Below the pieces are notes generated by a model. The model had not been told where the DNA came from. It did no database searches and saw nothing but the letters and a program-made list of their open reading frames with translations. A stretch of DNA of 64,000 nt from Clavibacter sp. Lineage in GTDB: Bacteria > Actinomycetota > Actinomycetes > Nanopelagicales > Nanopelagicaceae. Below are positions 1 through 1,573 of this stretch, piece by piece (positions within the stretch are counted from its first letter, which is position 1; every line of letters begins with the position of its first letter). The DNA lies in NCBI GenBank assembly GCA_003569145.1, contig BGOH01000004.1, positions 1 to 64,000 on the forward strand, in the 5' to 3' direction. Made by a program: the position numbers and the translations under genes.

Positions 1-1172
1 GAGGTGAAACTACGAACCGAACCTGCCTGTGGGGTTGCAAGCCAAGGATATGGATAGAGCGCAGCTAACTTTTTAAATTTCTTAAATGAAGGCACTGGAG
101 CATAGGTGACCGCTACTGCGTTCTCTGCAGCAAACTCATAGGGATCTCCTAGATAAACCCGCACCTCGCGCCGCTTGCTCAAGTCTTGGAGTGTCTGCAG
201 ATAGAAGGCAATTCGTCTTGAACTGAGCTGCAATTTAGCCAGCGCCGCTTTGTTAAAGATAAAGAGAGCTATCAGATCAGGGTGTGCGACAAGTGCTGGA
301 TCAGCATCACCTAGTGAATCGATGGTCAATAGAACATAGCCAGGTGCGCCATTAACGACAGGCTCAAGAGGTCCTCTTGTTGTAGCTAGATCTGGATCAT
401 TATCAAGAAGCGGATCCTTATCCAATTGATGCGGCGTAATCTCATCAGGAAAGTTCTGGATCGGACAGGCTTTCTTAAGTGCACACTTAAAACACAACCC
501 AGGTGCACGCTTTTCCACCTGCCATCGCGCAAAACCATATGGCTTTCCAGTTCCAGCGCCAACGCTCCACTGCCACCCTAGAAGATTTGCAGCACGTGAA
601 CCATCTAGTAGCTCTCGGTGCATTCGCTCTTGTCCATGCAACCAACCTTTATCTGCGCGCACCGTCCACTGCGATGCCAGCCACATCCGGGTTTGATTGA
701 CCAGCCAAGCATCGCTCTCCAATTCACTAAGCACAGTGTCGATACATAACATGCTGCGATCCCAGCCATCACCTTCGCTGCTCCAGTTGGCTTCATATCT
801 AAGATTTTCAAATAAGCGAACACCTATCCGTGCATATAAATGGCGGGCATACTCCTGCCAGTAAAGCTCATCGCGGAATTTCTCACGATCTTTAAATGGC
901 GCATCCTTAACCGCTTTGTAGACCTGAGTTAACGTCAAGAGGTTATGTCGGATATATGGAGATAAGACAGTTGCTCCACGGCGTTCCAATGGCAACACCT
1001 CGGAGCGATCCTCGGCGTAGCGAGTGATATCCAAATTGGCCAAGGCCATATTCGCCGCGCTCTGACCACCTGCAATAGAGCTAATACCAAGAGCGCCAGA
1101 GTAAAGGCCAGCAAAATCGCATCCGATGATCTCTAATACATCGCGATTTAAGTCAATAATCTGCAGCTCCAT
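1..1172 (-). CDS. Photolyase/cryptochrome-family protein, apparently circularly permuted (partial)
   Basis: The open frame starts at ATG 1172 and runs off the left edge after 390 codons. Residues about 1-240 look like the helical FAD-binding half of photolyases: LSPYIRH, ELYWQEYARH, NQTRMWLAS and LDGSRAANLLGWQW, with the Asn equivalent to E. coli N378 retained and D374 replaced by Ser. Residues about 277-390 look like the alpha/beta (antenna) half that normally comes first: SLGDADPALVAHP, then SSRRIAFYLQTLQDL, then VYLGDP. The order is therefore reversed in one uninterrupted frame. Cys143, Cys227, Cys230 and Cys236 resemble the spacing of the FeS-type bacterial cryptochromes/photolyases. The likely role is light-dependent DNA repair or light sensing. 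Family assignment is strong; activity is unknown and the C-terminus is missing. An in-frame stop lies four codons upstream of the start, and no clear ribosome binding site is seen. Confidence 0.85.
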   Translation of the reverse strand, partial: MELQIIDLNRDVLEIIGCDFAGLYSGALGISSIAGGQSAANMALANLDITRYAEDRSEVLPLERRGATVLSPYIRHNLLTLTQVYKAVKDAPFKDREKFRDELYWQEYARHLYARIGVRLFENLRYEANWSSEGDGWDRSMLCIDTVLSELESDAWLVNQTRMWLASQWTVRADKGWLHGQERMHRELLDGSRAANLLGWQWSVGAGTGKPYGFARWQVEKRAPGLCFKCALKKACPIQNFPDEITPHQLDKDPLLDNDPDLATTRGPLEPVVNGAPGYVLLTIDSLGDADPALVAHPDLIALFIFNKAALAKLQLSSRRIAFYLQTLQDLSKRREVRVYLGDPYEFAAENAVAVTYAPVPSFKKFKKLAALYPYPWLATPQAGSVRSFT

Positions 1173-1264: not shown

Positions 1265-1573
1265 TTACTCCCCCAAGCTCCACTCATATTGCCTATCAAC
1301 CTTAACTACCTGGATCTCATACCAGCTATAGAAGAGCTCTCTTCCTAGCCTTTGAACCTCTTTATGCTCTGGGTTTTCTCGCCAGGTTTTAATTGCTTCA
1401 AGGCTTTCAAAATAAGAGATTGTTACTCCAGATCTAGAGACTGGATCTCTATGGCTGTAGTGAGAGATATAGCCAGGGGTGGCCTTTACTAACTCCGCCA
1501 TATTTTCAGAGTGGCTCTCATAGAGCTCGCTATGCTCATTAGTTCTAATGGAGCGAAAGATCACGGCATACAT
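1265..1573 (-). CDS. Antibiotic-biosynthesis-monooxygenase (ABM) domain protein
   Basis: A 102-residue single-domain protein. It has the ABM ferredoxin-like pattern: an N-terminal strand MYAVIFRS, a helix with a TPGYISHYS turn, a second strand ending ISYFESLEAIKTW, and a Trp/Glu-rich C-terminus. Members act as small cofactor-free or heme-binding oxygenases, or simply as fold-conserved stress proteins, so a precise reaction cannot be given. It is cytosolic with no signal peptide. It lies alone on the minus strand between the photolyase-like gene and a small plus-strand ORF. The size fits the family and nothing is truncated. Confidence 0.75.
   Translation of the reverse strand: MYAVIFRSIRTNEHSELYESHSENMAELVKATPGYISHYSHRDPVSRSGVTISYFESLEAIKTWRENPEHKEVQRLGRELFYSWYEIQVVKVDRQYEWSLGE

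What the first reader, a model, noticed from the sequence alone, without database searches (positions are those of the whole stretch)
1..1172. Photolyase/cryptochrome with reversed domain order
The helical FAD-binding module (LSPYIRH, ELYWQEYARH, NQTRMWLAS, AANLLGWQW) comes first, at residues about 1-240. The alpha/beta module that normally starts these proteins (LGDADPALVAHP, SSRRIAFYLQTLQDL, VYLGDP) follows at about 277-390, in the same uninterrupted frame. I know of no described circularly permuted photolyase. Domain interfaces, antenna binding and activity could differ from the textbook enzymes.
Basis: partly seen in the sequence, partly recalled or inferred. Interest (0 to 1): 0.82.

Follow-up and report, generated by a model that had tools for sequence, protein, structure and literature searches.

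The report
Domain-swapped DNA photolyase, a known type
An actinobacterium carries a light-driven DNA-repair enzyme whose two halves come in the opposite order from textbook photolyases; the reversed order is real, but enzymes built this way have been described since 2020 (NewPHL, SPL, Phr4-Phr7), so this is a further member of a known type.

Summary
The minus-strand ORF at 3-1172 (390 aa, roughly the last 7-17 residues lost at the contig end) has a photolyase FAD domain at residues 1 to about 250 and a photolyase alpha/beta domain at about 278-390. No N-terminal alpha/beta domain exists: the frame opens only 6 codons upstream. A search with the model of a homologue's C-terminal domain alone returns almost only photolyases and cryptochromes, many aligned to their N-terminal alpha/beta domain. 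The novelty claim fails: reversed-order photolyases are published as NewPHL (2020), SPL (2021) and cyanobacterial Phr4/5, Phr6 and Phr7 (2022). This protein is the iron-sulphur kind: C143, C227, C230 and C236 are invariant in 51 sequences, spaced almost as in Phr4 and in the same alignment columns as the cysteines of FeS-BCP (6-4) photolyases. Its active-site residues, however, are those of CPD photolyases and NewPHLs, not of FeS-BCPs, so I predict light-driven CPD repair. The gene occurs in 26 of 396 sampled Actinomycetota genomes, without a conserved neighbourhood; the window's own genome also has an ordinary photolyase. The actinobacterial clade is well supported; whether all reversed enzymes share one origin is unresolved.

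The parts
3..1172 (-). whole ORF, 390 aa, ATG at 1172, C-terminal end missing at the contig edge
   Evidence: complete homologues continue about 7-17 residues further
453..1172 (-). N-terminal FAD-binding (catalytic) domain, residues 1-240
   Evidence: Pfam FAD_binding_7 at 101-209; fold match of 1-252 to the FAD domain of solved photolyases
342..452 (-). connecting segment, residues 241-277
   Evidence: between the two modelled domains; poorly conserved in the alignment
3..341 (-). C-terminal photolyase-type alpha/beta domain, residues 278-390
   Evidence: secondary structure in the model; fold match of the homologous L039 domain to photolyase residues 2-130; sequence bridge through Deinococcus to PF00875
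744..746 (-). Cys143, predicted Fe-S ligand 1
   Evidence: invariant in 51 sequences; same column as an FeS-BCP cysteine
465..494 (-). Cys227, Cys230, Cys236 (CxxCx5C), predicted Fe-S ligands 2-4
   Evidence: invariant in 51 sequences; same columns as FeS-BCP cysteines; spacing as in Phr4
567..869 (-). active-site stretch, residues 102-202: E102, W105, N159, R162, M163, W177, N196, W200, W202
   Evidence: residues aligned with E. coli photolyase 1dnp; identical to class I and NewPHL rows, unlike FeS-BCP rows

Best explanation
It is an iron-sulphur reversed-order photolyase of the SPL / Phr4-Phr6 / NewPHL kind. The N-terminal domain binds FAD, and the Trp pair W200-W177 (with W130 as a possible third in this lineage) would feed electrons for photoreduction. 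Light-excited FADH- would then split cyclobutane pyrimidine dimers held by E102, W105, N159 and M163. Four cysteines (C143, C227, C230, C236) hold the end of the FAD domain around a [4Fe-4S] cluster. The alpha/beta domain, moved to the C-terminus and without the long canonical linker, packs on the FAD domain as a cap rather than as a strong antenna site. Shown by computation: domain order, folds, cysteine pattern, identity of the active-site residues, spread. Inferred: FAD and cluster binding, CPD rather than (6-4) repair, any preference for single-stranded DNA, a weak or absent antenna.
For: Fold of both halves; no upstream domain; sequence bridge to PF00875; four cysteines invariant in 51 sequences, spaced 84/3/6 against 85/3/6 in Phr4 and in FeS-BCP columns; CPD-type active site; intact in complete chromosomes of IMCC25003 and IMCC26077 and in 26 of 396 Actinomycetota genomes; SPL is reported as a CPD photolyase with an Fe-S cluster and NewPHL as a CPD photolyase on single-stranded DNA.
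Against: No biochemical data on any actinobacterial member. Haney et al. propose (6-4) activity for Phr4/5 and Phr6 and saw no light dependence for phr4/phr5 in E. coli. The C-terminal domain is only weakly matched by sequence and by Foldseek. The tree does not join the actinobacterial clade to NewPHL. Cyanobacterial Phr4/Phr6 and SPL sequences could not be compared directly.
Confidence: 0.75

Rival explanations
1. It is a (6-4) photolyase, as Haney et al. suggest for Phr4/5 and Phr6 from the Fe-S cysteines.
For: The four cysteines share alignment columns with those of FeS-BCP (6-4) photolyases; the best fold matches of the FAD domain include Fe-S PhrB, Z 16.4; loss of phr4 matters after UV-C but not UV-B.
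Against: At the positions equivalent to E. coli E274, N341, M345, W359, W382 and W384 it carries the CPD-type residues, whereas FeS-BCP carries Q, H, L, P, M and A. The Z lead of PhrB over Thermus CPD photolyase (16.1) is a tie. SPL is reported to have CPD activity with an Fe-S cluster.
Confidence: 0.12
2. It is a cryptochrome-like light sensor or a protein without repair activity that kept the fold.
For: The host genome already has an ordinary photolyase; phr4/phr5 protection in E. coli was not light dependent.
Against: All CPD active-site and Trp positions checked are conserved in the 20 actinobacterial rows except W130; no signalling partner gene is conserved next to it.
Confidence: 0.1
3. 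The reversed order is an assembly or annotation artefact.
For: The gene lies at the very end of a contig.
Against: The same order occurs in many independent assemblies, including complete chromosomes CP015603 and CP015606, in 26 of 396 Actinomycetota genomes and on Deinococcus plasmids.
Confidence: 0.005

Closest known systems
Phr4/Phr5 and Phr6 of marine Synechococcus and Cyanobium (Haney et al. 2022, PMC9426592)
   Same: FAD domain first, photolyase alpha/beta domain second; four Fe-S cysteines with almost the same spacing (85/3/6 against 84/3/6)
   Different: Actinobacterial; one fused gene here, while Phr4/Phr5 are two ORFs; the authors infer (6-4) activity, the active site here points to CPD
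SPL, short photolyase-like proteins (Xu et al. 2021, as described in PMC9649867 and PMC9178010)
   Same: No N-terminal alpha/beta domain; Fe-S cluster; reported CPD activity
   Different: Described in the papers read here by what it lacks; whether its C-terminal part is recognised as the alpha/beta domain could not be read (original not held)
NewPHL / Phr7 (Emmerich et al. 2020, as cited in PMC9426592 and PMC13274461)
   Same: Inverted topology; CPD-type active-site residues
   Different: NewPHL-like proteins read here lack the four cysteines and do not group with the actinobacterial clade with certainty
Deinococcus reversed proteins on plasmids (annotated 'FAD-binding domain-containing protein')
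   Same: Reversed order, four cysteines, C-terminal domain matching PF00875
   Different: About 26-31% identity by tblastn; longer C-terminal part; in strain QL22 split into two overlapping ORFs
FeS-BCP (6-4) photolyases (PhrB, CryB)
   Same: Four cysteines in the same alignment columns
   Different: Normal domain order; different active-site residues; cysteine spacing 88/3/13 in the copies read here

Membership tests
Photolyase/cryptochrome superfamily | FAD-binding helical domain of the DNA photolyase fold | tested here: met
   Pfam PF03441 above cut-off; fold match of residues 1-252
Photolyase/cryptochrome superfamily | alpha/beta domain of the DNA photolyase fold | tested here: met
   Fold match of the homologous C-terminal domain of L039; sequence bridge
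Reversed-order photolyases (NewPHL, SPL, Phr4-Phr7) | FAD domain N-terminal, no alpha/beta domain before it | tested here: met
Phr4/Phr6 type | Four Fe-S cysteines, spaced as in Phr4 | tested here: met
Phr4/Phr6 type | Sequence grouping with cyanobacterial Phr4 and Phr6 | not tested
   Cyanobacterial sequences could not be reached
SPL | Fe-S cluster bound and CPD repaired in vitro | not testable with these tools
   Needs purified protein; residues for both are present
NewPHL in the narrow sense (alphaproteobacterial / Phr7) | Grouping with NewPHL in a tree of FAD domains | tested here: inconclusive
   Separate well-supported clades; joining all reversed rows is not rejected, p-AU 0.278
NewPHL in the narrow sense (alphaproteobacterial / Phr7) | No Fe-S cysteines | tested here: not met
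   The window protein has all four
NewPHL in the narrow sense (alphaproteobacterial / Phr7) | CPD repair in single-stranded DNA | not testable with these tools
   Needs a repair assay
FeS-BCP (6-4) photolyases | Normal domain order and FeS-BCP active-site residues | tested here: not met

The most novel reading that the evidence does not exclude
The actinobacterial clade is a separate, uncharacterised lineage of fused Fe-S reversed photolyases with a CPD active site, possibly with its own origin of the domain swap, and would show that the Fe-S cluster and (6-4) specificity are uncoupled in a family whose root is disputed.
Probability: 0.3. Interest if true: 0.5.

Novelty: new member of a known kind. 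Interest (0 to 1): 0.3.

Why it matters
Reversed-order photolyases have been proposed to lie close to the root of the photolyase/cryptochrome family (SPL as ancestor, as reported in PMC9498864 and PMC9649867). The actinobacterial set adds many intact, fused Fe-S members, two of them in complete chromosomes (IMCC25003, IMCC26077), and makes a clear prediction that disagrees with the (6-4) assignment published for Phr4/5 and Phr6: an Fe-S cluster with CPD repair. That can be settled with one purified protein.

Tried and rejected
Narrow profile-profile comparison of the C-terminal domain with class I N-terminal domains from the same bacterial family gave only a weak score (P 0.03), in the right register, because both profiles are shallow; Deinococcus intermediates and the fold search were used instead. 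phmmer of the Deinococcus alpha/beta ORF against PDB sequences gave nothing significant; a photolyase appeared only at E 1.3. The VIA second look with the whole model reports mainly residues 1-252, so the C-terminal domain had to be modelled alone. No viral copy was found in viral contigs, and the phage hits cover only part of the FAD domain. Conserved gene neighbours were sought and not found across the 80 loci. Cyanobacterial sequences could not be reached: guessed plasmid accessions are not held, a plasmid locus is not accepted as centre, the control genomes give no handle. The original NewPHL and SPL papers are not held.

Full report
What is there. The minus-strand ORF at 3-1172 encodes 390 residues and runs off the start of contig C4. 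Only about six codons lie between the ATG and the upstream stop (open frame 396). Complete homologues mostly have open frames of about 390-430 codons and end about 7-17 residues beyond the window's last residue, so the gene is nearly whole and has no N-terminal alpha/beta domain.

The two domains. Pfam FAD_binding_7 matches residues 101-209 above its cut-off; no Pfam model reaches the C-terminal part directly. AlphaFold2 gives pLDDT 93.4 and pTM 0.92. Residues 1-252 superpose on the FAD domain of solved photolyases, best on Fe-S PhrB (Z 16.4), tied with Thermus photolyase (16.1); against A. nidulans photolyase (1owl) the range is 184-472. [quoted passage not shown] residues 2-130 of 6dd6, Z 8.4, rmsd 2.7, 100 residues; 47 of the 50 rows listed are photolyases or cryptochromes. 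Z of 8 is modest, and Foldseek alone is less clear: class II photolyases lead at E 9e-3, followed by other Rossmann folds. By sequence, the window's C-terminal domain matches the alpha/beta ORF of Deinococcus sp. QL22 at E 3e-8 in a small set, and that ORF and its fused Deinococcus relatives match Pfam DNA_photolyase at E 2e-4 to 1e-3, below the curated cut-off. No equivalent of the canonical interdomain stretch (about residues 131-183) appears in either match, which suggests that the linker is missing. The order is truly reversed.

It is already known. Haney et al. 2022 (PMC9426592) describe Phr4/Phr5 and Phr6, in which the FAD domain is N-terminal and the photolyase domain C-terminal, and Phr7, which they match to the photolyases of Emmerich et al. 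2020. [quoted passage not shown] PMC9649867 reports Xu et al. [quoted passage not shown] The 2020 and 2021 originals are not held, so they are cited through these papers.

Which kind. The window protein has C143, C227, C230 and C236, invariant across 51 aligned sequences. Their spacing is 84/3/6; Phr4 of RS9916 has C169, C254, C257 and C263, which is 85/3/6. In an alignment of FAD domains these four fall in the same columns as the cysteines of FeS-BCP proteins taken from relatives in the same family. NewPHL-like alphaproteobacterial proteins lack the set; Deinococcus reversed proteins have it.

Likely function. Positions equivalent to E. coli E274, W277, N341, M345, W359, N378, W382 and W384 (numbering counted on the 1dnp alignment) are E102, W105, N159, M163, W177, N196, W200 and W202, identical to class I photolyases and NewPHL. 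FeS-BCP has Q, W, H, L, P, N, M and A in those columns. I infer CPD repair. This disagrees with Haney et al., who infer (6-4) activity from the cysteines, and agrees with what is reported for SPL. Their data for phr4/phr5 are mixed: the phr4 mutant survives UV-C 20-30 times less well, but in E. coli the protection did not depend on light. W130 is a candidate third electron-transfer Trp (E. coli W306) in the window's own lineage but varies elsewhere.

Relatives and origin. Full-length reversed genes were found in 9 of 101 family genomes and 26 of 396 Actinomycetota genomes, and 80 loci were fetched from public genomes, two of them in complete chromosomes. The host genome also carries an ordinary photolyase. 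No gene neighbour is conserved across the loci, as expected for a stand-alone repair gene, possibly moved horizontally (inference). In the FAD-domain tree the actinobacterial rows form one clade (100/99), NewPHL another (100/99), and Deinococcus joins NewPHL at 91/88; class I and FeS-BCP are separate. Holding all reversed rows together costs 0.50 log-likelihood units, p-AU 0.278: one origin is neither shown nor excluded. Several long branches meet in this tree, so deep joins are unsafe.

Verdict. It is a new actinobacterial member of the reversed-order, iron-sulphur photolyases, most likely a CPD repair enzyme.

Noticed in passing
L113:2872-4163 (Deinococcus sp. QL22 plasmid, NZ_CP097153.1): The reversed photolyase is split into two ORFs, FAD domain (257 aa) and alpha/beta domain (173 aa, annotated hypothetical), overlapping by 4 bases, much like cyanobacterial phr4/phr5; other Deinococcus plasmids carry it fused.
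   Followed up: partly
L048:268-5185, L059:267-5185, L062:2-4017: A class I-type photolyase ORF lies about 2.3 kb from the reversed one, with a transcriptional-regulator-like ORF and an SDR-like ORF between them, in several related genomes (L044 shows the same pattern).
   Followed up: partly
L150:1204 onward (Persicobacter sp. JZB09 plasmid, CP012852.1): An unannotated protein of a Bacteroidota plasmid looks like another reversed-order photolyase: FAD domain first, an alpha/beta-like part after it, without the four cysteines; it joins NewPHL in the tree on a long branch.
   Followed up: partly
L095:4001-5167 and L104:4001-4771: Broken copies: in L095 the frame stops after 45 residues although the match runs on to residue 390; in L104 the match ends at residue 245, so the alpha/beta domain is not encoded in frame.
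   Followed up: no
window 1265-1573, minus strand: A 102-residue ORF just upstream on the same strand looks, by eye, like an antibiotic-biosynthesis-monooxygenase-type protein; it was not searched against a family library.
   Followed up: no
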